A stretch of 40,429 bases of DNA from an uncultured Bdellovibrionales bacterium (GTDB taxonomy: Bacteria > Bdellovibrionota > Bdellovibrionia > Bdellovibrionales > Bdellovibrionaceae). A program made the translations under genes and the position numbers. Under the pieces are notes generated by a model that was given only the letters and a program-made list of their open reading frames with translations, had not been told where the DNA came from and did not search any database. The stretch's first letter is position 1, and every line of letters begins with the position of its first letter. Location: the NCBI GenBank assembly GCA_903926205.1, contig CAIYID010000029.1, forward strand, positions 1 through 40,429, read 5' to 3'. Of the stretch, positions 20,367-40,138 are shown in pieces.

Positions 20367-20449
20367 CAAGTGGTTCCAGACGCGAACAATATCAATAACG
20401 ACTCGTTGCAACTGACCGTCTTGCCACTCCGGATCTTTAGCTAGAAGAA

Positions 20450-20686: not shown

Positions 20687-20701
20687 TGATATCCCCTTTT
20701 C

Positions 20702-20721: not shown

Positions 20722-20822
20722 GGTTATTTTGTTTAGGACGGCAAAACGCCGTTCCTTTCAGCCCTTATACCCGCGCCAGCCCATTATTTGCCTATATTTT
20801 AAGCACCTGAAAACAGATGAAT

Positions 20823-21773: not shown

Positions 21774-21891
21774 TGAAATCCTCCTAGTTTTGAATTGGTG
21801 AATGTGTTGAGAAACTTATTATCTGATATGTTGCATGGGCGTAGTTTTTAAAAAGGCTCGCCGTGGACCATCAAGGACCACGACGACAGTT

Positions 21892-22215: not shown

Positions 22216-22228
22216 TTTAAAACTCCTC

Positions 22229-22414
22229 CTATGTAAAATAATTTCTTGCCGTAAATTCTTTTTGCCCAAGTGGTCTTGATGGCTCGTTTGGTATATTGCC
22301 ATTTTCGGTCATCTCTAGCAGGCTAGCGAAGGCAAATAGGCAATTCGCGATGAGCAAAATTCCATTCGCAAAAATGAGAGCTTTTTTGCTGGTTGGTAAT
22401 TCGTGAAAATTCAA
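22229..22414 (-). CDS. Small single-helix membrane protein, module copy B
   Basis: The TTG at 22414 has GGAGG a few bases upstream and gives MNFHELPTSKKALIFANGIL, then a membrane helix to about residue 33, TENGN and the end ARNYFT. It matches the protein at 11852-12046 from end to end. It is the first gene of the leftward copy B module. Confidence 0.65.
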   Translation of the reverse strand: MNFHELPTSKKALIFANGILLIANCLFAFASLLEMTENGNIPNEPSRPLGQKEFTARNYFT

Positions 22415-22676: not shown

Positions 22677-25424
22677 TTACCCACTTTTCTTTTCCTTACT
22701 TTTCAAAGTAAGGGTAGCCCTAGATTCCGTAACCAGTCCAATCAATTTCTCGACCGTAACAGCCGGCAAATGTGTAAAATAGGGCACAAAGGGAAGCGCA
22801 GCTCGAAGACGATCCGACTGAGCCACTTCTGTGGAATACGGTGTAACGAAAATTGAGTGTCGAGTCACCATTTCGTCAACATTGGGCAAATCAAACTCAG
22901 GAACCATCCCACTCTTAGAATGACCGGCATCAGCGAGTAGTTCAACTTGACGGGCCAGGCTTTGGGCCTCGTCCCAGATAAACCCTGATTTAAAACGCCT
23001 ACCAAGATTTTTCGATAAGAATACTCTTTGCGCGTATCCACGTAGTCGGAAAACTCGACCCGCACGCTGCAGGTAATCGGTCGCACTATTTGGTGGTTCA
23101 TAATGGACCGTCGTCCTACAGTAACTGTGAAAATCTAGTCCCTCCTGCCCAGAACTGTTTATGATCAAAACAAATGGAGCAAATGGTGAATTAAAGGCAT
23201 CACGCAACAGGTGTGGTCGATTCATCTTTTGCACAGAAGACGCATCACCATATTTTTCGGCCATGTGACTTTGATACCAAATCTTCTTCTTACCCCGACC
23301 CACACGCCGATTCTTGGCAGATGTAACATGCGCAGGACGCAAATCACGTAGTGCTACCGTGCCGCGCTCTAACATGGCCTGTATTGATTCAACAGTGACT
23401 GTGAACTGATCACGGCCAAGCAACTGATCCCAATACTCAACCCACATATCGGCCCAACCAAAATCTACACAATAATCCGTCAGCACGCGCATATATGCCT
23501 TGGGCTTCAGTCTCGAATTCTTAGCTCTCTTATTTTTGCGACTATTCCATCGCTCCACGATTGTTTTTGCGTATTGCGAGCCAAAATAATTTTCTAGACC
23601 TAATTGTATTCCAAGACGTACAGACGTCGGAGAAATAGCCTCCAACATGACTTCGCGTAGCGTGGTTTCATCTAATGAAGAAGTGCGTCTCAATAAGGCT
23701 TCTGCGAGTGCTTGAACTACTGCCACCCCTGGAGATTGTGAACGCATTCCAAATCGCAAGGAAAGTCCATCCCATTTTGTGCGAGATGGCACAATAAATG
23801 GATTTGCAGGATTTCTACGATGCAGTTTCGTGAAAGGCTTTTTCCACGCCTTTTCAATTCTAATCTTTAAAAGTTTTTGATCTGAGAAAACCTCGAGAAC
23901 TTCCGGAGCAACGGCCGCAACCGATGAAAATATTAGCATCTTTTCAAGTCTGTTTTTTGAATTCACTGGAGGAACCCACAATGCTTGTGCACAACCCCGA
24001 TCATCAACTAATCCATTTTCTTGAGCCTCGAGGAGCACCGCTTTCTTTTTCCACACAGTACCATCAACTCCATTGGCTCCCTCTTTAAGCTGGCTGTTCC
24101 ATTTTGCTTGCAATCCTTTAGAGTGAACATAGTCACCTAAAACATAATGAAATTTTCGTGATTGCCGCCGTCTGCCTGACACTCGCTTCTTCGGATTCAC
24201 TTTGTGAGTTTTTTTTCCATTGCTTTTACCACGCAACGAAACAAAGGAGTCAGAAGATAGAATTTGTGTACGGTTCATAATAGCCTCTCGCGACCCCTGA
24301 ACCACACTGTGCAATTTTGCTATCCGCGTGAAGACCTCATCGACTGTTAAATTAAAGTCACCTACGCTTCTCGCCGACACCTCTCCTTTCGATTCTCTAG
24401 TCTGCTCAATCAGAACGTCCTTGAGACGCCTTTTAAAGACATGACCATCAATCAGAGAATTCAACTCATCTCTGTCGTTTTTGCCGGCCCTGAAAAACTC
24501 TTTAATCTTAGCTTCGTGATCTAGCCGATCCTTAAGCCAACTCTTATATTCTTCCTCGTCCAGTCGGCTGATCAAATATAGAAATCGGTCAAAGTCCCGG
24601 CCATGCCTATGAGTTCTGGGAACTTTTTCGCCTGACAAAATTGTTGGAATCGCCTCGTAGGGAGTTGCCGAAACTAGAATCAATGGCGATGTTTGGTTTC
24701 CATACCCTTTAAGCAAATCTGAAAATAAATTAAAATTAGCTTTAATTTGCCTTTTTTTATTTGTACCGACTTTATTTTCAAGAAACGAGGGAAGTGCCGC
24801 CGCATATCGGTGAAATTCATCTAAAATAATCAAATCAGGAGCACATTCTTTCAGAATTTCTGCGGCGACATCACGGCGAAATGTCTGGGCACGCGCCTTT
24901 GCTCTTCGATTCCATTTCGACCCCCAACGCCCCATAGTCCCAAGAAGACCTCGATACCTATCGACCCGATACTGCGCGATTCTTGATCCACGAAATTGCT
25001 TCAGACAATCCCGTAAAAAAACCTTCTCTTCCCGATTACCAGCTCCACGCAAACTCATGGACGTGTCTGGCGTAAGGCCGACGATAATAGTTTGCGAAGA
25101 GCCATATTCCCTTTCAAAGTCGCGCAAAACATTAGGGAGTAAAGTGATTCGTGTAAGAGTGTGATGCACGTTTGGCAAGCCCAACTTTTTAAGTGTATCC
25201 GCCAACTTGTTAGCATTGGCCTCTGCTAAATTTAGATTACTTGCAAAATATAAAATAATTTTCTGATTCCTCTTAAATCGCACGAGGTTCTTAGCAACCT
25301 GAGCCACAACATGAGTCTTGCCTAACCCTGTTTCAAAACAAAGTGCGCAGACTTTGTTTTTACTGGATAATGCTTTAATTACCTTTTCCGCACCCTGCAG
25401 TTGAAATACTGGTTGGTTTGTCAC
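22677..25424 (-). CDS. SF2 helicase of the defence-like locus
   Basis: A 915-residue superfamily 2 helicase. Walker A is ETGLGKT (31-37), motif II is LIILDEFH (DEFH at 202-205), motif III is LVSATP (about 250-255), and the C-terminal motor domain has SSGQEGLDFHSYC (motif V) and YLQRAGRVFRLRG (motif VI) at about 755-800. The ~300 residues in between are basic and probably bind nucleic acid. The GTG start overlaps the stop of the phospholipase-D-type gene (GTGA), so the two proteins are made together. Helicases of this type beside a PLD nuclease and a DUF6361 protein act in phage defence or DNA processing; the precise role is inference. Confidence 0.85.
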   Translation of the reverse strand: MTNQPVFQLQGAEKVIKALSSKNKVCALCFETGLGKTHVVAQVAKNLVRFKRNQKIILYFASNLNLAEANANKLADTLKKLGLPNVHHTLTRITLLPNVLRDFEREYGSSQTIIVGLTPDTSMSLRGAGNREEKVFLRDCLKQFRGSRIAQYRVDRYRGLLGTMGRWGSKWNRRAKARAQTFRRDVAAEILKECAPDLIILDEFHRYAAALPSFLENKVGTNKKRQIKANFNLFSDLLKGYGNQTSPLILVSATPYEAIPTILSGEKVPRTHRHGRDFDRFLYLISRLDEEEYKSWLKDRLDHEAKIKEFFRAGKNDRDELNSLIDGHVFKRRLKDVLIEQTRESKGEVSARSVGDFNLTVDEVFTRIAKLHSVVQGSREAIMNRTQILSSDSFVSLRGKSNGKKTHKVNPKKRVSGRRRQSRKFHYVLGDYVHSKGLQAKWNSQLKEGANGVDGTVWKKKAVLLEAQENGLVDDRGCAQALWVPPVNSKNRLEKMLIFSSVAAVAPEVLEVFSDQKLLKIRIEKAWKKPFTKLHRRNPANPFIVPSRTKWDGLSLRFGMRSQSPGVAVVQALAEALLRRTSSLDETTLREVMLEAISPTSVRLGIQLGLENYFGSQYAKTIVERWNSRKNKRAKNSRLKPKAYMRVLTDYCVDFGWADMWVEYWDQLLGRDQFTVTVESIQAMLERGTVALRDLRPAHVTSAKNRRVGRGKKKIWYQSHMAEKYGDASSVQKMNRPHLLRDAFNSPFAPFVLIINSSGQEGLDFHSYCRTTVHYEPPNSATDYLQRAGRVFRLRGYAQRVFLSKNLGRRFKSGFIWDEAQSLARQVELLADAGHSKSGMVPEFDLPNVDEMVTRHSIFVTPYSTEVAQSDRLRAALPFVPYFTHLPAVTVEKLIGLVTESRATLTLKSKEKKSG

Positions 25425-27190
25425 CGCATACCCCCCAGAAAGGCTTTTGCGGCTGCTATTTGATTTTGTTCTTCGCTAATTACTTTTCGCTTTGACCGAC
25501 GATTTAAATGAAGTAAAACACGCTCGATTTTCAAACGGGCCTCTTTTAGATTCCGACTTTGATGAAGCGCCTTAACTAGAATAGATTCCAAACCTGTTCT
25601 AGGCACACTTCTACTTGTCGATTGATGTGACTCTTCACCGCCGCCTGCTATGGGCACCGCAATCATTTTTCCAGTCAAAAAGAAATTCAATAATTGAAAC
25701 AAATCACCACGATACGCTTGACCAGGCAAAGACTTAAATTGTTGATGTGGATCTTCTGGTAAAATTGTAAAACCAGCCTTGGCAGATTTCTGTCCCTTGA
25801 TCCAAACGGAAACAACCAGCGTCTGTTGCACCTCATTCTCTGCAAATGATTCGCACACGATCGTTTCATCCAAACCTTTTTTTGATTTAAATGTAATTAA
25901 TTTGATAAGGTGACCGGTAACACTCTTTATTTCCAACAAAATCTGATCTGGTGACGGCTTGCCAACCCATGGCTCTATGCAAATTTTTAACGCCCTTTTT
26001 TGTTTCCAGACAAAAATACCAGAACTGACATACTCACGTAGCAGCCCTGCCCAATCCAAGGGAGGAACAATGTCATGCTCATCAAATTCCTTGGAGACCC
26101 TTATCATTTCAAGATCATCCCAAAAGCCTGATGGTATACTACCAGGCTTGGTTTTTAGAAGTACACCTAGCTCCCGATTTTTTTCCCACCCTCCCCTGGT
26201 GAAGTTAGCCGACCCGATATAACTCGAAATCGACCCATCTACGGCCTTAGAAAGGATCATCTTAGCGTGAATGTCAGACGTGTCTTTGATTCGCTGCAAA
26301 TCCAAAAACTTTTCTAGGTCCAGACACTGCCGTTGTTGTGCCTTTGAAAGAGTTCTTAATGTTGATGACAGCGTAACTAAATGGCGCTTTTCCGTCGAAA
26401 GGTAGGTTTGGATCATCTTTGCATTCGCCCAGGGACTCACCACCACTAAGTTTGTCGCTTCTTTTAACATTAAATCCAATTTTTCATTGGTTCCATCTCC
26501 AGTTGTGTTTCCCAGTAGCAGGATTTCTGGAGGACGATTGATCCATGTCATTCCCTGTGTGCCAGCTTCCAAATTGGAAATTAATTTCGCGAGTCCTCTT
26601 TTGTTAGGGTCCTTTAAAGTGATTCGAGCCCAATCCGCAAGCTGTTTGACAAAAGGATCTTTAGCTTTTTTTTTCGACTGCCCAGACTTTTCGGTAAATT
26701 CAAATTTTACCCCACATTCAACACTTTGCGTTTCAGTAGCGTTTTTTGATCCGATCACTATACGAGCTAATCGTGGGCCCTTCCCTAAGGGCGTAAATAA
26801 GGCCCAATATAACTTAGGATGAAATCGAGACCGAAATGTCTTTTTAATAATTATTTTTTGCGGGTACAGAAATACCCTCAACGCCTCGGTTAACCGAGCA
26901 CTTCTTTCTAATTTATCGATCTGTCCATTTTGAAAGCAAATTCCAGCATTCCCGGCCTTTAACTCCCCTATCAATGAGAAAAAACTCTTGTGCTCGTCAG
27001 TGCGTGCCTCCAAATGCCTCCGATTCTCAGTTCGACCTTCCGGAAAGAAATTGAGAAGTAATTCACCGATTGCCGTTGGCGATAATCCAAAACTACACAA
27101 TAGAACCTTTTCTAAAACATAACCTTCGGGAGGAATAAAGACATTTGAAGCATCTTCTTTCCGGAATGCTTTCATTTTATCTTTGACCAC
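25421..27190 (-). CDS. Phospholipase-D-family nuclease-like protein
   Basis: The 589-residue product has two PLD half-sites: FHPKLYWALF with GSKNATE at residues about 123-153, and HAKMILSKAVD with GSANFTRGG at about 308-334. The two HxK motifs with downstream GSxN form one active site in PLD nucleases and phosphodiesterases. Several DNA-processing members of this family work with helicases. The GTG at 27190 has AAGAGG six bases upstream and overlaps the DUF6361 gene by 14 bases; an ATG at 27175 just after the DUF6361 stop is possible. It overlaps the helicase gene at its end. Confidence 0.85.
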   Translation of the reverse strand: MVKDKMKAFRKEDASNVFIPPEGYVLEKVLLCSFGLSPTAIGELLLNFFPEGRTENRRHLEARTDEHKSFFSLIGELKAGNAGICFQNGQIDKLERSARLTEALRVFLYPQKIIIKKTFRSRFHPKLYWALFTPLGKGPRLARIVIGSKNATETQSVECGVKFEFTEKSGQSKKKAKDPFVKQLADWARITLKDPNKRGLAKLISNLEAGTQGMTWINRPPEILLLGNTTGDGTNEKLDLMLKEATNLVVVSPWANAKMIQTYLSTEKRHLVTLSSTLRTLSKAQQRQCLDLEKFLDLQRIKDTSDIHAKMILSKAVDGSISSYIGSANFTRGGWEKNRELGVLLKTKPGSIPSGFWDDLEMIRVSKEFDEHDIVPPLDWAGLLREYVSSGIFVWKQKRALKICIEPWVGKPSPDQILLEIKSVTGHLIKLITFKSKKGLDETIVCESFAENEVQQTLVVSVWIKGQKSAKAGFTILPEDPHQQFKSLPGQAYRGDLFQLLNFFLTGKMIAVPIAGGGEESHQSTSRSVPRTGLESILVKALHQSRNLKEARLKIERVLLHLNRRSKRKVISEEQNQIAAAKAFLGGMR

Positions 27191-28706
27191 GATAGACCTC
27201 TTTTAGAATAGCCAAAGCCGCGCCCAAACGAATATGTCCTTCAAGCTCGACATCTTTATTATCTTGAAACAATGCCTTCAGGATGCTTTTCCAACTTTCA
27301 CTTTTATATTTTGAAAATTTTGTAAGATATAGAACAGATTTAGATGTTTTTGTATTATATTTCCGCCAACCAATTCGAGCTCTTCCAGCTTTAACAATGT
27401 TCTCGCGGTCAACTATTCTTTCGCGCAAAATATTTTTCCGCTGATTAATTTTCGAGCCCCACCAGAAATCATAAATCTCATGCAAAAAATCGACACTTCG
27501 AAGTGAACTCTCCGTGCTAGATTCTGCACACCAAGCCTCTATCTGAACCCAATCAGCATCCGATAATTTGACCGCCAACTCAGAAACATCTGATGAATCA
27601 ATGTTCTTCGCCAGCGCGACGTCTTGCGCTTCTAATAGAAATAAGTAATAGTGCCACCTTATCAGGCGCACCCATGACAACACTCTACCAATTAGCGCAA
27701 CCTGTTTAGAAAATTCCTGCTCGCCGGCTGCGGTCATATTCATGGCAAGCGCATTCATATAAGAGATGGAATCATTACCGGTGAAATTAAGGAGAAGTCG
27801 GCTATTTCGCACCACACTTTTGGGAAATTTATCCATCCTAACATCATTAAAGGCGCCCTTAAATTCTTTTATCTCAATGCTAGTCAGGTCATAGGTAATT
27901 TTTCGATGTACCTTATCAGGGGATCGCAGCATTGAACGAAGACTTTGAATATGCCCCTCAACAATGTCAAAAAACTTAGAATTGGCTCCAAATAGGTCCT
28001 CAAGGAAATCCAGAGGATCCAATCGCGCACCAATCTCAAGGGTCTCATTAGGAGCAAACTTGGCTGCAAATTCCACGGAACCAAGTTCTTGCTCAGCATT
28101 AAAAAGCCTAAGTGCATATTTAAAAAAACGTGCGGTCGCATGCATGCCAAAACTTGCCTGAATTCCTAGTTTCAATGATCTTTCTAAATCTCGCTGAGAA
28201 AGTGAATCGTTGCGTGGATAGACTTCGTTAGATTTCCCGTACTCCTCTTTGTCTTTAAAAAAGCTAATACCGATAATTCGATCAGGTTTTTCGCGGTTTG
28301 AATTCTTAAGCCAGTTCCAAGTCATTATTGTTTCAATTTTTCGAACTTCACATTGGAACTTCTTTAAAAACTCATTTTCGGAAATGCCACGCTTTGAGTC
28401 TTCCAAAGTATTTTCTACAGCCAATATCGCGATCGCTGGTGCCATAAAAAAATACTTCGCTCGTCTAGTCAAAACTGTACAGTATGGAAACACTCGATTA
28501 GCCAACATCTCGAGAAGTGGATCAAGTTGAAGCTCGTCGACAACACCAGTCTCACCATCTACGTCATCGCTATTGGCTAGCTCTTGACGCAAAAGATGGC
28601 TTTCAATAAAGGGACCATAGAGCCAAACTTGGGCCAGATTTTTCAACAGAACTCTCCCATTCATTTTACCAGATCGAACAAAATCATCATGCCTTTTGGA
28701 AAGCAC
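27177..28706 (-). CDS. DUF6361-family protein
   Basis: The part VVDELQLDPLLEMLANRVFP, then TVLTRRAKYFFMAPAIAIL, at about residues 55-100, is the hallmark of DUF6361, in which a predicted DNA- or partner-binding N-terminal domain precedes a long helical part. The biochemical role is unknown to me. The GTG at 28706 directly follows AGGAG, which is too close; an internal ATG at 28664 may be used. The stretch 28707-28945 upstream has no gene and must hold a promoter for the DUF6361-PLD-helicase operon, unless transcription continues from the DUF2779 gene. These three families are, to my knowledge, recurrent neighbours in defence islands. Confidence 0.7.
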   Translation of the reverse strand: MLSKRHDDFVRSGKMNGRVLLKNLAQVWLYGPFIESHLLRQELANSDDVDGETGVVDELQLDPLLEMLANRVFPYCTVLTRRAKYFFMAPAIAILAVENTLEDSKRGISENEFLKKFQCEVRKIETIMTWNWLKNSNREKPDRIIGISFFKDKEEYGKSNEVYPRNDSLSQRDLERSLKLGIQASFGMHATARFFKYALRLFNAEQELGSVEFAAKFAPNETLEIGARLDPLDFLEDLFGANSKFFDIVEGHIQSLRSMLRSPDKVHRKITYDLTSIEIKEFKGAFNDVRMDKFPKSVVRNSRLLLNFTGNDSISYMNALAMNMTAAGEQEFSKQVALIGRVLSWVRLIRWHYYLFLLEAQDVALAKNIDSSDVSELAVKLSDADWVQIEAWCAESSTESSLRSVDFLHEIYDFWWGSKINQRKNILRERIVDRENIVKAGRARIGWRKYNTKTSKSVLYLTKFSKYKSESWKSILKALFQDNKDVELEGHIRLGAALAILKEVYRGQR

Positions 28707-28945
28707 TCCTAGTAACTTTTAATGACCGATTCCCAGTTCTTCTTAGATAGCTTCACCAAGGATCCCTTCGGCTTTTTGACCAATTTTTTCGAGCCCAACA
28801 ACTATATTCTTTGGACTTTACCTAGACCAACCAAAGGTCGTATTTTTATTCCAGGCTAGATAATTCATCTTTAAGATAACCTTCACAATTTGAACATAAC
28901 TAGCCTTAAATATTGCACACTGGTATCAGCGTCCCTGCCGCATTC

Positions 28946-30388
28946 TCATTTCAGTTTTCCTCTGCCCATCCCACGACTGTTAGACATCGAAATGACTGCA
29001 AACTTTGGCAGTTTAGAAAAATCCAGGCCGGCATTATCAAACAGCCACTTTGCCAACAGAACCAATGCCATCGTGTCCTGGCGACAATATTCGAGAAGAT
29101 CGTTGATGACCTTCTTCCTGCTCTGCTTATCTAGTTGCCCTTTAAGAATTTTTTCTGCGAATGCCTGCGCAGCATCTCCGCCCTGAATTCCAAGGTTTTC
29201 GTAATTGTACTCTTTCCCTATAAGAGCCGGCGCAACAACTTTTAAACTGTAACCCTCGACAAAGTCGGGATGCTTCACTGTTTTTTTAATAACGGGCCAA
29301 GGATCAACAAAACGTGGGATCAGTGCCAATAATTTTTTTGAACTTTTAGAATCAAATGCAGCAAGTTTTTTTATCACGCCTATTTCAAATCCTTTATTGT
29401 AAGACACAATACTTCCATTGGAGCCAAGACCCCTTAGCATCCCCTCAATTATTCCAGGTCTGGGATCGCTAGCTTCCTGGTGCAAATATTCAAAGTGGTC
29501 AAACTTTGTGGAGTCAGGATTACTAAGAACATGACAACTAAACTGAAACGGTACACCCGCATACGGACTGCAACCTTTATATCTTGGTATCGCTGGCCCA
29601 ATGGTTTCAAAGTCAAAAAGATAAAGTGGAAAAACCCAATCCTTCAGTGCAATCCTTAAAGCGGCTACGTCCACCTTAGCCTTGGACTTGGTTCCCACTG
29701 GTTTGTATTGCTTGATGCCCTTCCAACAATAATCTTTGAAAGCACACTCATATGGATCATCACATTGGTCGCCGACGGCAATTTTAGGTTCGGTTTTCTG
29801 CTTCGCAACTTTCCTTAACTCCTCTATCTTCTTAGCAATGCGTGGCTGAATCTCCTTAAATTCATCTGACACATCCTGGGTTAAAAAAAGGTTCGATAAA
29901 TCTGGGTGTACACATTCTCGATTCAAGTGCATCAACGAAACTGATTCCAATTTTATTCCTGCCTCGGTCAAAATCTGTGCCTGGATAGCTACGTCCTCCA
30001 CATATTCAGGCTTGGCGGAGACACCCATTTTTACCTCGACAAGATTCCAGCCTTTTTTCCCTTTCTTCAAGATATCGGCACGTGCGTACAAATCGTCAGT
30101 GCCAACTGACGCTTCCATTATAATTTTTTCGCCTTTTTTGATTGCGATATTGGTGTCCTCAATCGCTTCTGTGATCTCGTAATATTCCCGGTCTATCAAA
30201 ATTCCTTTTGGAAATAACTTTCTAGCGGCCTCACCAACTTCTTTACCCTCATCAAACCGTTTTTGTGTGCCGGGATCTGCCTCCCCCTCTAGTTCTGGTT
30301 TATTAAGTTTAAGCCAGAGCGCCTTGGGGCACTGAAAGCCTTTAACAAGTGTGCTCTTTGAAAGAAGACTGTTTTTATTTTTTTTCAT
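28946..30388 (-). CDS. DUF2779 protein: Cas4/RecB-like nuclease plus DnaQ-like exonuclease
   Basis: The 480-residue protein combines two nucleases. The N-terminal PD-(D/E)XK nuclease has D105 in ARADIL and EVK at 118-120, and four cysteines (C20; C209, C215, C221) at the positions of the iron-sulphur cluster of Cas4/AddB-like enzymes. The C-terminal RNase-H-fold domain begins LYLFDFETIGP (D259, E261) and ends with CRQDTMALV, the exonuclease pattern of DnaQ. Known proteins of this kind are found in many bacteria without an assigned function. The ATG overlaps the ASCH gene's stop (ATGA). Confidence 0.8.
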   Translation of the reverse strand: MKKNKNSLLSKSTLVKGFQCPKALWLKLNKPELEGEADPGTQKRFDEGKEVGEAARKLFPKGILIDREYYEITEAIEDTNIAIKKGEKIIMEASVGTDDLYARADILKKGKKGWNLVEVKMGVSAKPEYVEDVAIQAQILTEAGIKLESVSLMHLNRECVHPDLSNLFLTQDVSDEFKEIQPRIAKKIEELRKVAKQKTEPKIAVGDQCDDPYECAFKDYCWKGIKQYKPVGTKSKAKVDVAALRIALKDWVFPLYLFDFETIGPAIPRYKGCSPYAGVPFQFSCHVLSNPDSTKFDHFEYLHQEASDPRPGIIEGMLRGLGSNGSIVSYNKGFEIGVIKKLAAFDSKSSKKLLALIPRFVDPWPVIKKTVKHPDFVEGYSLKVVAPALIGKEYNYENLGIQGGDAAQAFAEKILKGQLDKQSRKKVINDLLEYCRQDTMALVLLAKWLFDNAGLDFSKLPKFAVISMSNSRGMGRGKLK

Positions 30389-30801
30389 ATTTTCGCCTTA
30401 AAGAAACCAAGTTGGCCCTTTTGTTTTTTTGGTTTTATCGTTTTAGGTCTGGAGAGAACCCAATGATAATCTCCTGAAATTGCCCAGACCGATTTTGATC
30501 GCTCTTCAATGCCACTTAAAACCACTGTTCCAACCAGTGCGCCATATTGAAATTCCTCTGGCGACTTTGGAATTTTTTTGATCTTTCGCTCTTTGCAGAT
30601 CGCCACAAATAGCGCATATTCAGCCGCATCCAATTTTCTTTGGCCAGCATGAATATAAATGCGATTCCCAATCTTCTTCTTGTTGAATTTCCAGCTTCTA
30701 TTCTCGATATCCTTGTAGCCATTCACGATGAGCCACGCCCAAGGTTGTCTCACAGAAAGTGCTATGTTTTCTGTCCCAGTCTTTGATTTTTTAGATACCA
30801 T
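30385..30801 (-). CDS. ASCH-domain protein (second in the defence-like locus)
   Basis: The 138-residue product begins with ALSVRQPWAWLIVNGYKDIE and NRSWKF, the classical ASCH start, then IYIHAGQRK and GALVGTVVLSG, and ends with a basic tail (KPKKQKGQLGFFKAK). The pocket residues E and R are present. PUA-like proteins of this kind bind RNA or modified nucleotides. GAGAGGTGAT lies before the ATG; the gene follows the AAA+ gene by 11 bases and overlaps DUF2779 by 4. Its place between an ATPase and two nucleases suggests it recognises the substrate; that is inference. Confidence 0.8.
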   Translation of the reverse strand: MVSKKSKTGTENIALSVRQPWAWLIVNGYKDIENRSWKFNKKKIGNRIYIHAGQRKLDAAEYALFVAICKERKIKKIPKSPEEFQYGALVGTVVLSGIEERSKSVWAISGDYHWVLSRPKTIKPKKQKGQLGFFKAKI

Positions 30802-30812
30802 AAATCACCTCT

Positions 30813-33071: not shown

Positions 33072-33135
33072 ATGCTCTCCTTTCCCACGTCCAAAAAAAC
33101 AATTCTTATCTCACTCTACTCAAGTAAAAAATCGC

Positions 33136-34365
33136 TTACTCGCCATCGATCTTCGGCGCAGTTAGTTCAAGTCGCTCTATTGTTGGCAGACTTCGCCCAA
33201 GAATGCCCTGGAGGTCACCATAGAGTGCGGCTTTTGAGGCCAAAAGTTTATTGAGCTTAACCCCTCTAGCTTTCCAGATCCGCGTAAATGCAGATTGTTC
33301 AGTCGTAAGCTCATCGATCATATCCGTAACTGTTTCAACATCAGTCTCCATCGACTGTTTGAATTTTGTACCTGTTAAAAATCTAAAAATTTCTTCTTTT
33401 TGGTCTGCAGGAATAGTGTTGGCCATTCTAATTTGATGGACCTTTAAAAGCTGTTCCCGCAAAGCTCCAATAAATGCAACGGCAAGCCCTGGTACGACTA
33501 TCCACACGCCATCCCTAAACTCGATTCCAGAAGTCATACCTTCAGGTTTTGCCTTAGTAATGAGGACCGCCAAATCGGAACCCTCAGCGCGTTGATCTTC
33601 TTTTAATTTATCAATCCATTTTTCTGAAAAATTGATCGTGTCCTTAGCCTCAAGACTCATTTGCCCTGCGATATTTCCCGACTTGGATTTCACAATGTGG
33701 ATAATATCGCTGCCATTTTTTCCTTTTGGCACGGGCCTAAACTCATCGGTTGAAAACGCTTCTGGCAATAGCTCCTCAAGTTTCTTCTCAAAGGATTCGC
33801 CCTGCGCTTGCTGAGATCCTTGACTGGCTTTGCGATTAGCCTCTTCTAAGAGTTTGGCCATTTGCTCGTTTTTATAGGTAAGGTCTGAAATCTTTTTATC
33901 AGATAGTTCATGGAGGCGTTTTTCAGTTTCTTCCGTGATCACTTTAGCTCGTTCATCAAGTTTTCGCTCAAGCTCCAAATCCATTTGCAGCTTTTGCGCC
34001 TGCAGCTCGCGTTCCCGTTTTCGAAGTTCGAGCTCTCGGGACTGCGCCTCATCAGCACGCTTTTTTTCTTCTTCAAGTTGATTTTTTAGATCCTCTGTTT
34101 CTACAGCAGATTTCTTCTTGAGTTTTTCCTCAATGATTTTCTCTTGCTTCTTCTGATTAACGATAGCTTCGGCTTCATACGTTTTTTTAAGCTCGATATT
34201 GTGTTTTTCCATATCGGCCAATTGCTTTTTGTAGATGGACTCTTGCTCAGCAATCTTGGCGGCAAATTTTGCAGAAACTTGTGCCTCAATATTTCCACTC
34301 AGGGCAGCCGTAAGCGGAAAGGATTTATGGCAATGTGGACATTCAATTTGTTCAGAAATTTTCAT
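33136..34365 (-). CDS. DUF2130 coiled-coil protein with predicted nuclease domain
   Basis: The ATG at 34365 has GAGGGAG upstream; an in-frame ATG at 34392 would include that site. The 409-residue product has a short zinc-knuckle-like start (CPHC at 9-12), a long charged coiled coil (about 30-195, EEEKKRADEAQSRELELRKR) and a C-terminal PD-(D/E)XK-like domain with GSDIIHIV and MSLEAKDTINFSEKW (E-x-K). DUF2130 proteins occur in defence and phage-inhibition contexts. The gene begins the second leftward operon, divergent from the Xre gene. Confidence 0.8.
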   Translation of the reverse strand: MKISEQIECPHCHKSFPLTAALSGNIEAQVSAKFAAKIAEQESIYKKQLADMEKHNIELKKTYEAEAIVNQKKQEKIIEEKLKKKSAVETEDLKNQLEEEKKRADEAQSRELELRKRERELQAQKLQMDLELERKLDERAKVITEETEKRLHELSDKKISDLTYKNEQMAKLLEEANRKASQGSQQAQGESFEKKLEELLPEAFSTDEFRPVPKGKNGSDIIHIVKSKSGNIAGQMSLEAKDTINFSEKWIDKLKEDQRAEGSDLAVLITKAKPEGMTSGIEFRDGVWIVVPGLAVAFIGALREQLLKVHQIRMANTIPADQKEEIFRFLTGTKFKQSMETDVETVTDMIDELTTEQSAFTRIWKARGVKLNKLLASKAALYGDLQGILGRSLPTIERLELTAPKIDGE

Positions 34366-34421
34366 ATCGCGACTCCCTCTTAAATTGTTCAACCCAGATA
34401 TTAGTCTAGCTCATATAACGC

Positions 34422-34434
34422 GTATTGTCAATAC
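34422..34434. promoter_or_regulatory. Palindrome between DUF2130 and Xre genes: likely operator
   Basis: GTATTG-T-CAATAC is a perfect 6-1-6 palindrome in the divergent intergenic region, about 57 bases from the DUF2130 start. It is a natural site for the Xre regulator encoded next to it and could control both directions. Confidence 0.5.
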
Positions 34435-34435
34435 T

Positions 34436-34537
34436 ATGGGTAATAATTTATGTCTACAGGTGAGACGGTTGGCCCATAAAGAGCTTAAAAGCCTAAAGAA
34501 GGCCATTATTTATGCCGATGGGTGCTTTGAGAGGTAA
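34436..34537 (+). CDS. Possible 33-residue leader peptide before the Xre gene
   Basis: ATG at 34436 opens a basic 33-residue frame (QVRRLAHKELKSLKKAIIYA in its middle) that ends four bases before the Xre ATG. It begins one base after the palindrome and has no ribosome binding site, so it may be leaderless or not translated. It may also be just the 5' leader of the Xre transcript. Confidence 0.25.
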   Translation: MGNNLCLQVRRLAHKELKSLKKAIIYADGCFER

Positions 34538-34541
34538 CTAT

Positions 34542-34910
34542 ATGAATGGCACTTCTAACAGTAATAAGGGCTCAGGAATCGATCAGTTTTCCCTACCAGA
34601 ACGCATTGGTTATATGCGGGTACGGCGCAATCTTACCCAAGGCGAGCTTGCAGCGAAAGCTGGTGTTAGCCAAAGCACCATTGCTCACATTGAAAATGGG
34701 AAGAAAGATCCATCCCTTTCTACCCTAAAAAAAATTGCCACAGCACTTGATGTCCACATGGCCGTTTTATTCTCCAGCGACCAGGTACACGTGTTTGATA
34801 TGGAACGTCTCAAGAAAAAATATGACAATGTCGAAAAACTGAATCCAACTCTGTATTATGCGATTGGCAAAGTAGTTGCCTACGCAAAGGACATTGGATT
34901 TTTAAAGTAG
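34542..34910 (+). CDS. Xre-family regulator of the defence-like locus
   Basis: From the ATG at 34542 (GAGAGG upstream) the 122-residue product has a standard Cro/CI HTH: RIGYMRVRRNLTQGELAAKA, GVSQSTIAHIENGKK, then LKKIATALDVHMAVLF. A short helical C-terminal part (KKYDNVEKLNPTLYYAIGKV) may mediate dimerisation. It is the only rightward gene in the locus, between two leftward operons, and ends 8 bases from the stop of the convergent methyltransferase gene. It is probably the repressor of the DUF2130 operon. Confidence 0.85.
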   Translation: MNGTSNSNKGSGIDQFSLPERIGYMRVRRNLTQGELAAKAGVSQSTIAHIENGKKDPSLSTLKKIATALDVHMAVLFSSDQVHVFDMERLKKKYDNVEKLNPTLYYAIGKVVAYAKDIGFLK

Positions 34911-34918
34911 CAGTATTT

Positions 34919-37900
34919 TTAAGCTGCTTTTTTCTTAATATTTTCCCTTTTGAAAGTAATTCCCACGAGCCGCGAGGCTTCTCCGCTTTCACATATCTGA
35001 GTCCTGGACTCACCTTTCAACGCACGCACAACCAGCACATCAATTCTATTGAGTGCCTCCGTGGTAACTATAGCTTTCCCTATAATTTTTTTAACAGCCC
35101 TATATAACTCGTCGGAGGCCAAAACTGAAATAGGAACCGCGATATGCTCGCTATAAGCCGGATTTAGTTCGTATCCTCCCAGCTCCTGTCCGCCACTTGA
35201 TCTCCCGCCGCTCAATCGCTTTATCGTCTGCATTGAACACAAAACCTCAAGCGATTGAGAAAAGACCTTCGATGACAACCAAGCTGCGGTGTTAAAAACA
35301 ATTTGTTCATCGATTAACGGATTGGCAGTAAAAGCAACGTGACAATCCCTTATTACCACTGACTCTTTGGTACAGCTCATTGGCAACCTAGACGCACCTA
35401 TTTCAACACCAGTCCACTGAAATGGAAATATTAACTTCCAGTTATCTTTTTCCAGCAAAGATTCCTTGATTGGCCGTCTCCAACTAAAAGGAAAATCATT
35501 TTTTGTCTTTGTTTTCTTTTTTCCCTTTTTTGATTCCGCACCGGTGGTCACACTGAGTAACTTCTTCCTTTGATCTTCGGACAAATTTTTTGCAATTAAG
35601 TCATGCGCGACCGCATAAGACTCTAGCTGACGATTAACCTGATTCGGAGGAGCAAGATACACCATTTTGCCCGCCGATGGCTTAGTCATGGGCTGACAAG
35701 TTCCGTTTCGGGGAAGACACCCAACAACAAGGTCTTTCAACGCCCGTTTTTCTGCCAATGATTGCCAAATTTCATTTTCTCCAGTGTCCGGACCTTTTCC
35801 GACTTCAAATCCTAAATCCGTCACCCTTATCATCTGTCCGAACTGAAGTTTGGGAAGACTAAACTTACAAGTATCTTTTCCCTTTTTATTCGTATTAAGA
35901 AACGCCACGGCAGTAAGGGAGGGCGTATGCTGAAACAGTTGTCTATGACCGTAATCATAATAATAACAATTTACAGTTCTAGGATCTGTAAGAAAGTCAT
36001 CCTTCCCTTTCACTAAAATCTGCTGCTTAACCAAAATTCCAAAACGAAATTTTTTTGATCCCGAAAATTCATCTATACATTTCAAAACGACGGTACCGGA
36101 AATCTCGTGAGTATCTTCTTTATTAGGACCCCTAATTTTTTCTACTTGTGCCCATACCTTGTCTGGGCCAACCAGTTTTTCTCGATTTTTGGATTTCGAT
36201 GAAACGATTCCCCAAGGAGCATTACCGATGATTGCTGTTGGCTTTTTTAAATTTGATGGCCAATCAAATAGAAAGAAATCTTGGTTAAAAAAGTTCTCTT
36301 TAATAAAAGGCATCTCCAATCCCGATTCAGCCATAGGGTCAACGCCAAGTCGCTCAACGAACAGACTCAAGAGGGATGCTTTCGCTATACAGATAGCGTA
36401 AAAATCACGGTCATTGCCAAATACATTTTTAGAAATAAACTTAGAAAGTCTTTTTATTTCAGCCCGTTCGGAAATTCCAGGCGGAAATAATTTTTTGACA
36501 GCTGCCACCAAAAAACTTCCACACCCACAAGTCGGGTCAAATACTATATCATCTGACTGAACCTGAAGCTCATTCAGAACGTCTTCAACTAATTCAGTCG
36601 GCGTATAAAATTCTGTCAATTTTAACTCATTGACTCGATTTATGAAAGTTTCATAGGCGTAACCAAGTTCTTCTTGAGGCATAGCATCTACTCTAACATC
36701 ATAAGGTCGACTAATATTGTATGCCTCGATAAAAACGTTCAGATGAGCTTTTGACACAGGAAGGAAGTTTTTACTAATCCATTTCTGAAGGACAGTATGC
36801 ACCCAAGATACGTTCTTTGCCTCGAACAATGCGTGATCAATTTCCGAAACAGAAACAAAACCACAATTCCTAAGAACCGCCAACAGAAAAACTTGCATTG
36901 TATAATCAATTGCAGTTTTTCCATCTTTAACCTTCGCGTTTATAAGATTATATGACTTAAAAAGATTTTCAGCCAACGCCCGATCACATGTCCCATTGGG
37001 TTTTGCTCTAACACTTGTAATTGCAATCGGAAAATTAAGTCCCACTTTTCCATCACCAAGGAACTCACTGATATCCTCAACCAATTTGTTCTTTAGGTAA
37101 GAAAACTTCTCGTTTACGATCTCGTACTGCCATTTCATAACGTTGAGTTTTCCGTTAGCCGTTATTCTCTGAATATTTTGCTCTACGGAAAGGTCTGGAT
37201 TTAATAAAGCAAAGTACTGCCCATCAGCTAAAATGCACACGGGTCTGACTTCAATATTGTGTCGTACGTAATGGTTTGCCCTCGCATAGCTCATTGCTTG
37301 GCGCACACTCATTTCAAACATTTTTGAGGCTCTACCACCTAGCGCCTCAGACAAACCCGATGTCTCAGGCTTTTTCACTTCGATACAAACAACTGGACGA
37401 GTCTCATTTGGGAAATTTCTATAGATAGTTTCCACTACTATGTCCTGAAACTTATCACCGACCCGTTTTCCAAAGCGTAACGATTTTTTTCCACAAATTC
37501 GGACCATCAAGTCACGAACTTCATCGATCATCACATCAAACTCGCTATGAGCCCTTTTTTTCCTCGTTGGCTGCCAATAATCTGAATTTAAAATTTTACT
37601 CAGATGCTCTTCAAACAAATCTTGTGATTGAAATGGCCGATCAGTTGTCGCTTTGACTATTCCGTGAGAAAAACAAAGAATTTCTTTAAAATTCGTCAAC
37701 ACCAGTTTTTCTGAGTTTTCCTTGTCCACTAGACAACGATCATAAAAAAATTGTAAGTCGTCCTGAGAGGTAAAATAAAAACAAAGGTCCTTTGATTGAA
37801 TCAAAACTCTATGAGATCCTTCGGGCCCTAAACCATCCATAGTGTCCTCGCCAGGAACCCCAAGTTTATAGAGCACCTCTTTGGTGAGGATTGACTGGTC

Positions 37901-37948
37901 TTTTGACTTTAACTGCTTTGAATCATTGAAATTATATTTTTGTGCCAT
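34919..37948 (-). CDS. Fused nuclease and N6-adenine DNA methyltransferase
   Basis: The ATG at 37948 gives a 1009-residue protein; a longer frame to 38044 is less likely. The N-terminal part (about 140-250) looks like a type I restriction-type PD-(D/E)XK domain, with RPVVCIEVKKP at about 187-194. The methyltransferase has TEFYTPTELVEDVL, motif I FDPTCGCGSF (about 470-479) and motif IV IIGNAPWG (about 575-579). In motif IV the usual NPPW/Y reads NAPW. A long C-terminal region may recognise the target. This layout resembles type IIG or BREX-like enzymes that cut and modify with one polypeptide. It is the fourth gene of the leftward operon after the radical SAM and ASCH genes. Confidence 0.85.
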   Translation of the reverse strand: MAQKYNFNDSKQLKSKDQSILTKEVLYKLGVPGEDTMDGLGPEGSHRVLIQSKDLCFYFTSQDDLQFFYDRCLVDKENSEKLVLTNFKEILCFSHGIVKATTDRPFQSQDLFEEHLSKILNSDYWQPTRKKRAHSEFDVMIDEVRDLMVRICGKKSLRFGKRVGDKFQDIVVETIYRNFPNETRPVVCIEVKKPETSGLSEALGGRASKMFEMSVRQAMSYARANHYVRHNIEVRPVCILADGQYFALLNPDLSVEQNIQRITANGKLNVMKWQYEIVNEKFSYLKNKLVEDISEFLGDGKVGLNFPIAITSVRAKPNGTCDRALAENLFKSYNLINAKVKDGKTAIDYTMQVFLLAVLRNCGFVSVSEIDHALFEAKNVSWVHTVLQKWISKNFLPVSKAHLNVFIEAYNISRPYDVRVDAMPQEELGYAYETFINRVNELKLTEFYTPTELVEDVLNELQVQSDDIVFDPTCGCGSFLVAAVKKLFPPGISERAEIKRLSKFISKNVFGNDRDFYAICIAKASLLSLFVERLGVDPMAESGLEMPFIKENFFNQDFFLFDWPSNLKKPTAIIGNAPWGIVSSKSKNREKLVGPDKVWAQVEKIRGPNKEDTHEISGTVVLKCIDEFSGSKKFRFGILVKQQILVKGKDDFLTDPRTVNCYYYDYGHRQLFQHTPSLTAVAFLNTNKKGKDTCKFSLPKLQFGQMIRVTDLGFEVGKGPDTGENEIWQSLAEKRALKDLVVGCLPRNGTCQPMTKPSAGKMVYLAPPNQVNRQLESYAVAHDLIAKNLSEDQRKKLLSVTTGAESKKGKKKTKTKNDFPFSWRRPIKESLLEKDNWKLIFPFQWTGVEIGASRLPMSCTKESVVIRDCHVAFTANPLIDEQIVFNTAAWLSSKVFSQSLEVLCSMQTIKRLSGGRSSGGQELGGYELNPAYSEHIAVPISVLASDELYRAVKKIIGKAIVTTEALNRIDVLVVRALKGESRTQICESGEASRLVGITFKRENIKKKAA

Positions 37949-38102
37949 AAATAATTTCTCGGCAAAAAATGAAGACCTCTTAACGATTGATTTTTGCCTT
38001 GGCCGACAATGGCAGAACTTCTGGTCTAAAGTTTTTTGTGACAAATTAAAGATTGGGAAATACCCGGGCTAAAGTACTGATTTTTGGAAATGGAAGTGCT
38101 TC

Positions 38103-38504
38103 CTACCCTGGAATCCGAAGGCCGGTGGTGTATTGAATTCCAGTTCTTTTCTTTGGAGAAATCGGCGTTTTAAAAACTTTAACTACGGTCACGGGCCACC
38201 CCCACTTTCCTTTGGAATCAGTCCATGCCCATACCGACTCAGGGGTAACGCAATGACGGCCAGAGTCCGCATAGAACTGTTTCCTGTTTTCATATCTGAA
38301 ACTCTCGCCAAATTTTACAATCGCAATCATCCTAGCTTTGAACTTCCCCTTTTTGCCCGGCGTTTCCACAAGGACCATTTCCTGATTTATGTATTTGGCG
38401 GGTATCGGATATGTTCGAGTCTCAACAACCTTACGACCTTCAACTATTAGCTGAGAGATTGGGAATTGAATGTTGATTCCGCTCAATTTTTTTTGCTGGG
38501 CCAT
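38103..38504 (-). CDS. ASCH-like protein (first in the defence-like locus)
   Basis: The 133-residue product begins MAQQKKLSGINIQFPISQLI, then VEGRKVVETRTYPIP, the ASCH-type pocket with -EGRK--E-R, and KARMIAIVKFGES. It is followed by YADSGRHCVTPESVWAW and a basic C-terminal tail. Its start lies one base beyond the radical SAM gene's stop (the two are separated by a single base), so both are likely coupled. ASCH proteins bind RNA or modified nucleotides; a link to the product of the radical SAM enzyme is inference. Confidence 0.65.
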   Translation of the reverse strand: MAQQKKLSGINIQFPISQLIVEGRKVVETRTYPIPAKYINQEMVLVETPGKKGKFKARMIAIVKFGESFRYENRKQFYADSGRHCVTPESVWAWTDSKGKWGWPVTVVKVFKTPISPKKRTGIQYTTGLRIPG

Positions 38505-38505
38505 A

Positions 38506-39912
38506 TTATCTAACCAGCCCGTCAGGACTCTGCGGATCTGACACTTCTATTGCCGATTCAAGACCCAATGGAATGTATAACAAGTCAGGATTTATTGGTT
38601 TATAGCAATCTTTGCCTCCAACATTGACTCGCTCCTGGAATGGTACCATTCGGGAGTTTGTTTTGAAGGCGTCAACCTTTCCAACAATATTACAGCAATC
38701 TTTCTTGTTAGACCAAAGATCCTGCGTATCCCAAAACTGATTTTCGCCATTTCCAATGTAACAGACCGTAAATTCCATTGCTCTTCTAATTGTGCGTTTT
38801 TTTACTTCTTCATAATAATATCGTATTTCTCGATCGCTGTAATGCCAGTCTCGTGAAGACTTATTAGTTAGTTCTCTATTAAAAAATGGCCGCAAGTCAA
38901 ATCCGGTAGCCCTTTGAATATTATTAAGTGCGTACGAGCTAAATCTTCCAAATCCACAGATTATTGCTGGAACACCAGCATCCGCAATTTCATCGACCAT
39001 TTCAAAGGAGCTGTAATCAAACTTAGGAGCTGGACTATCAGAACTAAATTTTGGATCTGTAAAATAACCATCAGGATAAATCGGGAACATTGGATTCATG
39101 CGAACAGCTGTCCAAATTTTATTTTTGTTGAGTTTCTCTAGGGCGACAAGTCTCCTCTTTGCCGATGGCGCCCCTGGCTCAATGAGCTTATTCATGCTGT
39201 CATTAGTCGAAGCAATACTGAATTGAACCGAGCACAAATCCTTTTTTAACAATGCCAAATAGTCATCGTGAGCCACAAGGTCCGAACGAGTGATTATTGT
39301 GTACGGGTAATCATAAAAATTTAATATTTTTAAAAATTCCAATGTGATTTTATATTTTCCGTCTGACCACATGAAAGAGTCACTCATGCAGCCAATGCGC
39401 AATGGAACTTTTTGCTCCATTACATTTCGCCACTTAGATTTTTTGTCGGTTTCAAAAACAGTGTAAAAAACTTTTCTGATTTCGTTTAAATCTACCGGCA
39501 CAGGAATCGGATTATTCCAATATCCGTGAACTGTAAGCTCTGCCTTTGCATAACAATAGAGACAGTTGTGTGAACAGCCGCGCCCGTATGTATCGACTTC
39601 GAAAGCATAAAGACACTGCTGGCATGTTGAATGTGAATTTACCAATTTAAACGGGTTACTTTTGACTATCCCACCACGAACTGGCCGATCCTTGTATCTT
39701 AGTTCTAAGTCCCTATAGATTCTGTAATCAAATGAGGATTTGTAGGCTGACAGCAGATCCAATCTCTGCGCATCTTTTATTAGCTTGTTATAGGTCGGCG
39801 TAAGAAGCGACGGAGCCCCATCGTCAACTGATGGCCCTATTTTAAAATCGGTCGGTAGAGGTACAATTTTTGAAAGACTGTGATTTGCATCAACGCTAGT
39901 TTGGTCTGGCAT
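38506..39912 (-). CDS. SPL-like radical SAM protein
   Basis: The 468-residue product has the radical SAM cluster GRGCSHNCLYCYAKAE (C113, C117, C120; CxxxCxxC) and the features of the spore photoproduct lyase-like family: RIGCMSDSFMW, TIITRSDL, QFSIAST and VRMNPMFP. Two extra cysteines (C97 and C100) may bind another metal centre. True spore photoproduct lyases repair a thymine dimer in dormant spores; members outside spore formers occur in phages and islands and may modify DNA or RNA. The start overlaps the RHH gene by 17 bases. The true substrate is unknown. Confidence 0.8.
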   Translation of the reverse strand: MPDQTSVDANHSLSKIVPLPTDFKIGPSVDDGAPSLLTPTYNKLIKDAQRLDLLSAYKSSFDYRIYRDLELRYKDRPVRGGIVKSNPFKLVNSHSTCQQCLYAFEVDTYGRGCSHNCLYCYAKAELTVHGYWNNPIPVPVDLNEIRKVFYTVFETDKKSKWRNVMEQKVPLRIGCMSDSFMWSDGKYKITLEFLKILNFYDYPYTIITRSDLVAHDDYLALLKKDLCSVQFSIASTNDSMNKLIEPGAPSAKRRLVALEKLNKNKIWTAVRMNPMFPIYPDGYFTDPKFSSDSPAPKFDYSSFEMVDEIADAGVPAIICGFGRFSSYALNNIQRATGFDLRPFFNRELTNKSSRDWHYSDREIRYYYEEVKKRTIRRAMEFTVCYIGNGENQFWDTQDLWSNKKDCCNIVGKVDAFKTNSRMVPFQERVNVGGKDCYKPINPDLLYIPLGLESAIEVSDPQSPDGLVR

Positions 39913-40138
39913 CTTTGACCTCTTTTTTACTTTTCTTGCTAACGGCGGTGAAATTAAGTTCAGGCTTCTTGACGAACTCTAAAATGGCGACCTTCGCCAA
40001 AGTACTAAAATCAAAAAATGGATTTTTGTGAAGAAACTCTTCAATAAGTGCTTCCTCTTGCTCAGTAAAACGGACACCACGAACTTTGGCCACAATACCC
40101 CCGATTGAATGAATGGTAGATACATTTGTGTTAAACAC
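39896..40138 (-). CDS. Ribbon-helix-helix-type regulator
   Basis: A product of up to 80 residues with VRGVRFTEQEEALIEEFLHK and FDFSTLAKVAILEFVK, a beta strand followed by two helices as in RHH (CopG-like) DNA-binding proteins, and a lysine-rich tail. The ATG at 40138 has no good binding site; the GTG at 40093 with GGGGG just upstream is a likely alternative and gives a 65-residue protein. It heads the operon with the radical SAM, ASCH and methyltransferase genes and probably represses it. Confidence 0.65.
   Translation of the reverse strand: MFNTNVSTIHSIGGIVAKVRGVRFTEQEEALIEEFLHKNPFFDFSTLAKVAILEFVKKPELNFTAVSKKSKKEVKDARPN
40128..40138. promoter_or_regulatory. Small palindrome before the RHH gene
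   Basis: GTGTT-A-AACAC is a perfect 5-1-5 palindrome, 35 bases upstream of the GTG start at 40093. It is a candidate RHH operator. If so, the longer RHH frame starting at 40138 would not be translated. Confidence 0.35.

What the first reader, a model, noticed from the sequence alone, without database searches (positions are those of the whole stretch)
22677..40138. An eleven-gene modification-linked defence-like locus that I cannot assign to a named system
Seen: a leftward series of RHH, SPL-like radical SAM, ASCH, nuclease-methyltransferase, DUF2130 nuclease, double AAA+, ASCH, DUF2779 double nuclease, DUF6361, PLD and SF2 helicase, with many stop-start overlaps and a divergent Xre gene in the middle. 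Known: methyltransferases, PLD, helicases, AAA+ proteins and DUF2130/DUF2779 nucleases gather in defence islands; ASCH domains read modified nucleotides. Inferred: the host marks its DNA or RNA by the methyltransferase and perhaps the radical SAM enzyme, and the nuclease modules destroy unmarked or wrongly marked nucleic acid. It may instead be two or three separate systems side by side.
Basis: partly seen in the sequence, partly recalled or inferred. Interest (0 to 1): 0.85.

Follow-up and report, generated by a model that had tools for sequence, protein, structure and literature searches.

The report
Radical-SAM add-on for restriction systems
The locus is not one eleven-gene machine: it joins a known phage-defence system, a second rare nuclease module, and a compact three-gene cassette (regulator, radical-SAM enzyme, ASCH-fold protein) that, in a phylum that includes predatory bacteria, sits beside one or another DNA-methylating restriction system in nearly every copy, which points to an undescribed helper or extra marking step in bacterial DNA immunity.

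Summary
(1) 22677-28706 is ZacC-ZacB-ZacA, the known Azaca defence system. (2) 28946-34392 (DUF2779 nuclease, ASCH, double AAA+, DUF2130) is a separate operon; its AAA+/DUF2779 pair recurs, distantly, in four proteobacterial plasmids without the rest. (3) 38103-40138, RHH - radical SAM - ASCH, is a conserved cassette found almost only in Bdellovibrionota. Of 38 loci with rSAM and ASCH, 34 have an amino-methyltransferase (N6A/N4C) restriction module adjoining the ASCH gene; three of the other four run out of contig. The partner is interchangeable (Eco57I/IIG, methyltransferase+McrBC, type III-like, DruE+IIG), with at least 12 changes on the rSAM tree; 28 of 34 are on the opposite strand, often with stop codons overlapping by 4 nt. 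The rSAM has the spore photoproduct lyase fold (Z 19) plus five extra conserved cysteines; the ASCH fold is confirmed by prediction. No paper found in the searched library describes it. Best reading: a portable accessory that acts on nucleic acid together with whichever amino-methylating restriction system it adjoins; the chemistry is inferred, not shown. The window's own methyltransferase carries NAPW instead of NPPW.

The parts
39896..40138 (-). RHH-like small regulator, first gene of the cassette
   Evidence: Overlaps rSAM by 17 nt; found by iterated profile upstream of rSAM in 25 of 34 loci with enough upstream sequence; no Pfam hit
38506..39912 (-). SPL-fold radical SAM enzyme of the cassette
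   Evidence: Pfam Radical_SAM; relatives at about 45-82% identity in the phylum; model pLDDT 81.5, best match spore photoproduct lyase Z 19.1, 282 residues, 3.5 A; conserved Cys 97, 100, 113, 117, 120, 384, 406, 407
38103..38504 (-). ASCH-fold protein of the cassette (ASCH2)
   Evidence: No Pfam hit; model pLDDT 93.5, matches EOLA1/CXorf40A Z 13.3, TTHA0113 11.5, ZmASCH 11.4, TRIP4 9.5; directly follows rSAM in 38 loci
34919..38044 (-). N6 adenine methyltransferase with N-terminal PD-(D/E)XK-like motif; the cassette's restriction partner in this genome
   Evidence: N6_Mtase 40.2 bits; type IIG-like hits; motif IV reads NAPW; 58 nt downstream of ASCH2, same strand
34512..34910 (+). Xre/HTH_3 regulator, divergent to the DUF2130 operon and tail-to-tail with the methyltransferase
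   Evidence: HTH_3 E 4e-19; 8 nt between its stop and the methyltransferase stop
33136..34392 (-). DUF2130 nuclease-like protein (separate module)
   Evidence: PF09903 166.6 bits
30813..33071 (-). Double AAA+ ATPase with two Walker A motifs (separate module)
   Evidence: AAA; IetA-like; distant relatives next to DUF2779 in four plasmids
30385..30801 (-). ASCH protein 1 (separate module)
   Evidence: PF04266 24.3 bits, cut-off 21.2
28946..30388 (-). DUF2779: Cas4-like nuclease fused to RNase H-like domain (separate module)
   Evidence: PF11074 109 bits, Cas_Cas4, RNase_H_2
27177..28706 (-). ZacA of Azaca
   Evidence: PADLOC ZacA E 2e-10, partial
25421..27190 (-). ZacB (PLD) of Azaca
   Evidence: PADLOC ZacB E 1e-35 over almost the whole protein; PLDc_2
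22677..25424 (-). ZacC (SF2 helicase) of Azaca
   Evidence: PADLOC ZacC E 2e-76; ResIII, Helicase_C

Best explanation
The window end holds three neighbours: Azaca, a DUF2779/double-AAA+ module, and an RHH-rSAM-ASCH cassette joined to a methyltransferase module. The cassette is the new thing: a portable accessory of restriction-modification systems in Bdellovibrionota. SHOWN by comparison: the genes stay together; they lie next to a restriction module holding an exocyclic-amino methyltransferase (N6A/N4C); the module type changes often while the cassette stays the same; restriction modules exist without the cassette. INFERRED: RHH controls the cassette; the SPL-fold radical SAM enzyme acts on nucleic acid, most simply on DNA at or near the methylated base or as an extra mark independent of the target sequence, since partners with unrelated target recognition share it; the ASCH protein binds or edits that product, so that the neighbouring nuclease spares the host more safely, or attacks invaders that carry only the ordinary methyl mark.
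For: 34 of 38 loci with rSAM+ASCH have an amino-methyltransferase in the adjoining module; 3 of the 4 others have 0, 0.7 and 2.2 kb of contig left. Background is low: 60 related genomes hold about 21 strong Eco57I and about 30 strong N6_N4 domains, i.e. well under 1% expected per 6 kb. Partner types verified by Pfam/PADLOC on representatives: Eco57I/IIG with TaqI_C, methyltransferase+McrB+McrC, N6_N4+ResIII+endonuclease, DruE+IIG, N6_N4+Mrr. At least 12 changes among 7 module types on the rSAM tree. rSAM is SPL-fold, ASCH2 is in the nucleic-acid-binding PUA/ASCH fold. ASCH/EVE readers near restriction systems are proposed in PMC7641849. Paralogous rSAMs at 35-41% identity lack ASCH and methyltransferases, so the link is specific to this subfamily.
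Against: No substrate or activity is shown. ASCH-fold proteins can also be an RNase (ZmASCH, from memory) or an ac4C amidohydrolase (YqfB entry), so RNA or a nucleotide could be the target. The paralogues sit beside aminotransferase, PP-loop and carbamoyltransferase genes, which look like small-molecule or thio chemistry. The window's own methyltransferase has NAPW instead of NPPW, so its activity is uncertain. The position matching the SPL catalytic Cys (register from recalled SPL sequence) is Ser in most members, so the reaction is probably not SPL's. One locus (L109) has no methyltransferase in 5.9 kb downstream.
Confidence: 0.6

Rival explanations
1. Guard or abortive-infection module, like PrrC beside the EcoprrI type I system: the rSAM-ASCH pair damages or alters RNA when a phage blocks the neighbouring restriction enzyme.
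For: Dependence of the cassette on a restriction neighbour of any type is what a guard would show; one ASCH structural match is ZmASCH, an RNase from memory; RHH proteins are common antitoxin-type regulators.
Against: No nuclease or toxin signature was found in rSAM; partners are structurally unrelated, so one guard would have to sense many different complexes; toxicity was not testable.
Confidence: 0.2
2. Hitch-hiker: an RNA or metabolite modification operon that merely travels in defence islands.
For: Loci are rich in defence genes and some carry integrase-like genes; paralogues sit in metabolic-looking operons.
Against: The restriction module is the immediate neighbour, usually within 0-130 nt of the ASCH stop, across unrelated module types; general co-travelling would not give this fixed adjacency.
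Confidence: 0.12
3. Nucleotide sanitation: predators digest prey DNA, and the cassette removes methylated nucleotides that would otherwise confuse the host's restriction system.
For: Near-restriction to Bdellovibrionota; partners are amino-methylating; one ASCH structural match, YqfB, acts on an N4-modified nucleoside.
Against: Not all members of the phylum are predators; no nucleotide-pool enzyme seen beside the cassette; the chemistry is speculation.
Confidence: 0.05
4. One joint eleven-gene defence system.
For: Co-direction and tight spacing in this one contig; double AAA+/DUF2779 next to an A-PLD-helicase trio (PADLOC PDC-M27) also in Rhodoferax, which could tie blocks 1 and 2.
Against: None of the other cassette loci examined has AAA2, DUF2130, ASCH1 or Zac; 17 other DUF2779 loci of the phylum lack AAA2, DUF2130 and ASCH1.
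Confidence: 0.03

Closest known systems
Azaca (ZacABC; Millman et al. 2022, cited in PMC10952713 and PMC12278908)
   Same: Three contiguous genes with PLD protein and SF2 helicase, matching ZacA, ZacB, ZacC profiles in order
   Different: ZacA matches only in part; nothing else in the locus belongs to Azaca as defined
Spore photoproduct lyase (SplB)
   Same: Fold over 282 residues, CxxxCxxC radical SAM motif
   Different: About 17% identity; fails the NCBIfam lyase_spl_fam cut-off (16 of 437.6 bits); five extra conserved cysteines; genetic context is restriction, not spores
PA0069 / Rv2578c family radical SAM proteins
   Same: Best sequence-profile match of the radical SAM core
   Different: 80 bits against a cut-off of 360; no ASCH or methyltransferase link found described
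EVE/ASCH proteins beside type I restriction systems (PMC7641849)
   Same: A PUA-like modified-base reader candidate coded next to restriction-modification genes
   Different: No radical SAM enzyme in those systems, mostly archaea, type I systems only
PrrC/RloC nucleases linked to type I restriction systems (from memory)
   Same: Accessory gene that depends on a restriction neighbour
   Different: Anticodon nucleases tied to type I systems; here radical SAM+ASCH with many module types
IetAS
   Same: The double AAA+ protein at 30813-33071 is IetA-like
   Different: 149.5 bits against a curated cut-off of 510; a second AAA+ domain; DUF2779 and not a protease as partner

Membership tests
Azaca (ZacABC) | ZacC helicase | tested here: met
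   PADLOC ZacC E 1.7e-76, 256.7 bits
Azaca (ZacABC) | ZacB PLD protein adjacent | tested here: met
   PADLOC ZacB E 1.2e-35, residues 16-558 of 589; overlaps ZacC by 4 nt
Azaca (ZacABC) | ZacA adjacent | tested here: met
   PADLOC ZacA E 2.2e-10, but only residues 52-150 of 509 matched; Pfam finds no domain
Spore photoproduct lyase | SPL fold with radical SAM CxxxCxxC | tested here: met
   VIA Z 19.1, 3.5 A, 282 residues, next fold 15.3; C113-C117-C120 invariant
Spore photoproduct lyase | Sequence-family membership | tested here: not met
   lyase_spl_fam 16.2 bits, cut-off 437.6
Spore photoproduct lyase | Catalytic hydrogen-donor Cys | tested here: inconclusive
   Residue 175 is Cys here and in near relatives, Ser in most members; register with SPL is from recalled sequence
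PA0069 family radical SAM | NCBIfam cut-off | tested here: not met
   80.4 of 360 bits
ASCH superfamily (ASCH2) | ASCH fold | tested here: met
   EOLA1 Z 13.3, TTHA0113 11.5, ZmASCH 11.4, TRIP4 9.5
Type IIG restriction-modification (34919-38044) | Methyltransferase with standard motif IV [DNS]PP[YFW] | tested here: not met
   N6_Mtase domain present but motif IV reads GNAPWG
Type IIG restriction-modification (34919-38044) | Nuclease domain in the same chain | tested here: inconclusive
   PD-(D/E)XK-like motif (EFDVMID...CIEVKKPE) by eye, no profile hit
MADS | MAD2 methyltransferase | tested here: not met
   29.5 of 720 bits
IetAS | IetA ATPase | tested here: not met
   149.5 of 510 bits
IetAS | IetS protease partner | tested here: not met
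   No protease domain in the neighbouring genes scanned

The most novel reading that the evidence does not exclude
A new class of restriction-modification in which a radical SAM enzyme turns an ordinary N6-methyladenine or N4-methylcytosine (or a base beside it) into a hypermodified mark that an ASCH protein reads, giving many unrelated restriction modules a second, shared self-signal.
Probability: 0.25. Interest if true: 0.9.

Novelty: new variant of a known kind. Interest (0 to 1): 0.7.

Why it matters
If the link is functional, restriction systems can carry a generic, exchangeable radical-chemistry add-on, something I found described nowhere in the library searched. It would point to a new DNA or RNA modification made by a spore-photoproduct-lyase-like enzyme, and it is directly testable by mass spectrometry in Bdellovibrio-like strains that carry or lack the cassette. 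It may also bear on how predators that digest foreign DNA tell their own from their prey's.

Tried and rejected
Eleven genes as one system: rejected on co-occurrence. Generality of 'SPL-like rSAM next to methyltransferase': the window also has DUF5131 after an N6_N4 methyltransferase (8151-9819), but in the plasmid and phage neighbourhoods read, DUF5131 goes with TcmP or stands alone, so the parallel was dropped. Relatives of the double AAA+ protein in 60 related genomes and in the genome collection: only generic FtsH-type AAA hits, or none. Relatives of the methyltransferase: one moderate hit (29%) in 291 genomes of the phylum. rSAM in viral contigs: none. Plasmid tblastn with rSAM: only 24-30% hits over at most 56%. 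PDB sequence search with the rSAM profile gave armadillo-repeat artefacts above SPL. Terminal overlap or long repeats to show a circular or bounded element: none. Literature searches for the combination gave no description; the first Azaca search by short prefix terms was useless and was redone.

Full report
WHAT IS IN THE WINDOW. All twelve genes between 22677 and 40138 are present as described. Pfam confirms SF2 helicase, PLD, DUF2779 with Cas4-like and RNase H-like parts, ASCH1, two AAA domains, DUF2130, HTH_3, N6_Mtase and Radical_SAM. The second ASCH gene (38103-38504), the RHH-like gene and the gene called DUF6361 have no Pfam hit. The window is the whole of one contig (40429 bases) of a 3.34 Mb draft genome. 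Named relatives belong to Bdellovibrionota.

BLOCK 1, AZACA. The last three genes match ZacC (257 bits), ZacB (121 bits, nearly full length) and ZacA (39 bits, partial) of PADLOC, in order and with overlaps. Azaca is a published system; ZacC is its helicase (PMC12278908) and it holds a PLD-like domain (PMC10952713). This part is known.

BLOCK 2, DUF2779-ASCH1-AAA2-DUF2130. This operon-like group (with a divergent Xre gene, 34512-34910) does not recur as a set in the phylum: 17 other DUF2779 loci lack AAA2, DUF2130 and ASCH1. But distant double AAA+ proteins with two Walker A motifs lie beside DUF2779 genes in Azospirillum, Rhodoferax, Diaphorobacter and Sphingobium plasmids (about 25-27% identity), often with a WYL regulator. 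In Rhodoferax this pair is followed by an A-PLD-helicase trio that PADLOC calls PDC-M27, which resembles the Azaca neighbourhood here. So blocks 1 and 2 may at times go together; that rests on two cases and is weak.

BLOCK 3, THE CASSETTE. The radical SAM protein has close relatives (about 45-82% identity) in patches across the phylum; 35 of 291 genomes have a match at E<=1e-20, some of them only to a more distant paralogue. A scan of 84,980 species found 33 loci, nearly all in Bdellovibrionota or in MAGs with older Deltaproteobacteria/Proteobacteria names, one in a Cyclobacteriaceae MAG; viral contigs gave none. In 38 loci the ASCH gene directly follows rSAM, mostly with a 4 nt overlap; an RHH-like gene precedes rSAM in 25 of 34 loci with enough upstream sequence.

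WHAT FOLLOWS THE CASSETTE. In 34 of 38 loci the adjoining module contains an amino-methyltransferase. Of the four others, L103, L100 and L092 end 0, 0.7 and 2.2 kb after ASCH; L109 has none in 5.9 kb, but the other end of what is probably the same split cassette (L105, same MAG) has a DruE-like helicase upstream. Partner architectures checked by profile on representatives are Eco57I/IIG with TaqI_C, methyltransferase with McrB and McrC, N6_N4 methyltransferase with ResIII and an endonuclease, DruE-like helicase with a large IIG enzyme, and N6_N4 methyltransferase with Mrr. In 60 related genomes about 21 strong Eco57I domains, 30 strong N6_N4 domains and 17 C5 methyltransferases occur, so a chance neighbour within a few kilobases is expected in well under 1% of loci; type I N6_Mtase genes were not counted, which does not change the conclusion. 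Most strong Eco57I genes in those genomes have no cassette, so the dependence runs one way. Every partner found is an amino-methyltransferase, but large restriction modules favour these anyway, so this hint at chemistry is modest.

MODULE EXCHANGE. On a maximum-likelihood tree of 33 rSAMs the seven module types need at least 12 changes. The window's nearest relatives (L058, L079) have a type III-like module, the window a different N6 enzyme. In 28 of 34 loci the partner methyltransferase is on the opposite strand, and in more than half of these the facing stop codons overlap by 4 nt or lie within 2 nt, with unrelated partner genes. I cannot explain this junction.

PROTEINS. AlphaFold gives rSAM pLDDT 81.5; spore photoproduct lyase is the clear best match (Z 19.1, 282 residues, 3.5 A; next fold 15.3). 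Besides C113/C117/C120, cysteines 97, 100, 384, 406 and 407 are invariant, which suggests an auxiliary Fe-S cluster (inference). ASCH2 (pLDDT 93.5) is an ASCH fold nearest EOLA1, TTHA0113, ZmASCH and TRIP4, with EVE, YTH and McrB N-terminal domains lower in the list. A paralogous rSAM (35-41% identity; the same cysteines in the copies read) lies in chromosomal operons with class V aminotransferase, PP-loop, carbamoyltransferase or GDSL genes, without ASCH or methyltransferase.

HOW IT PROBABLY WORKS. Shown: conserved cassette, near-fixed adjacency to an exchangeable amino-methylating restriction module, predicted folds. Inferred: the rSAM modifies nucleic acid in a way independent of the partner's target sequence, and ASCH binds or edits the product; the result tunes or strengthens self/non-self discrimination by the partner. 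Guard-type abortive infection is the main rival. The window's methyltransferase has GNAPWG at motif IV, so whether this particular copy is active is open.

LIMITS. Many loci are MAG contigs and related to each other; module labels rest on BLAST to a small reference set and a motif, with Pfam on representatives. The partner in L080 is a fragment. L096 and L107 come from one MAG, and L087 and L089 from another. The literature library lacks most subscription papers, so novelty reaches only as far as that search.

Noticed in passing
L139, L141, L142, L144, L145: Chromosomal paralogues of the cassette rSAM in operons with class V aminotransferase, PP-loop (QueC/DUF7411-like), carbamoyltransferase or GDSL lipase genes; an uncharacterised pathway of its own.
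   Followed up: partly
window 8151-9819: An N6_N4 methyltransferase overlaps a DUF5131 (SPL-like radical SAM) gene by 14 nt; elsewhere DUF5131 pairs with TcmP, once convergent.
   Followed up: partly
ASCH/partner junctions in L068, L077, L081, L085, L094, L096, L097, L099, L102 and others: Unrelated partner genes end tail-to-tail with ASCH with a 4 nt stop-codon overlap or within 2 nt; a repeated, unexplained junction.
   Followed up: partly
cassette loci L078, L080-L083, L090, L091, L101, L102, L104 and the window: DUF2779 nuclease genes occur near 11 cassette loci although only 20 copies occur in 80 related genomes; a large enrichment.
   Followed up: partly
window 2698-22302: DnaG/Toprim/helicase-type replication gene, RepA-like AAA, two tyrosine recombinases (10444-11505 and 20823-21773) and transposase-like remains: the rest of the contig looks like a plasmid or integrative element.
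   Followed up: no
L151, L152, L155, L035: Double AAA+ plus DUF2779 (often plus WYL) genes together in proteobacterial plasmids; a candidate defence module of its own.
   Followed up: partly
L100: One cassette lies on a contig binned to a Cyclobacteriaceae MAG: transfer out of Bdellovibrionota or mis-binning.
   Followed up: no
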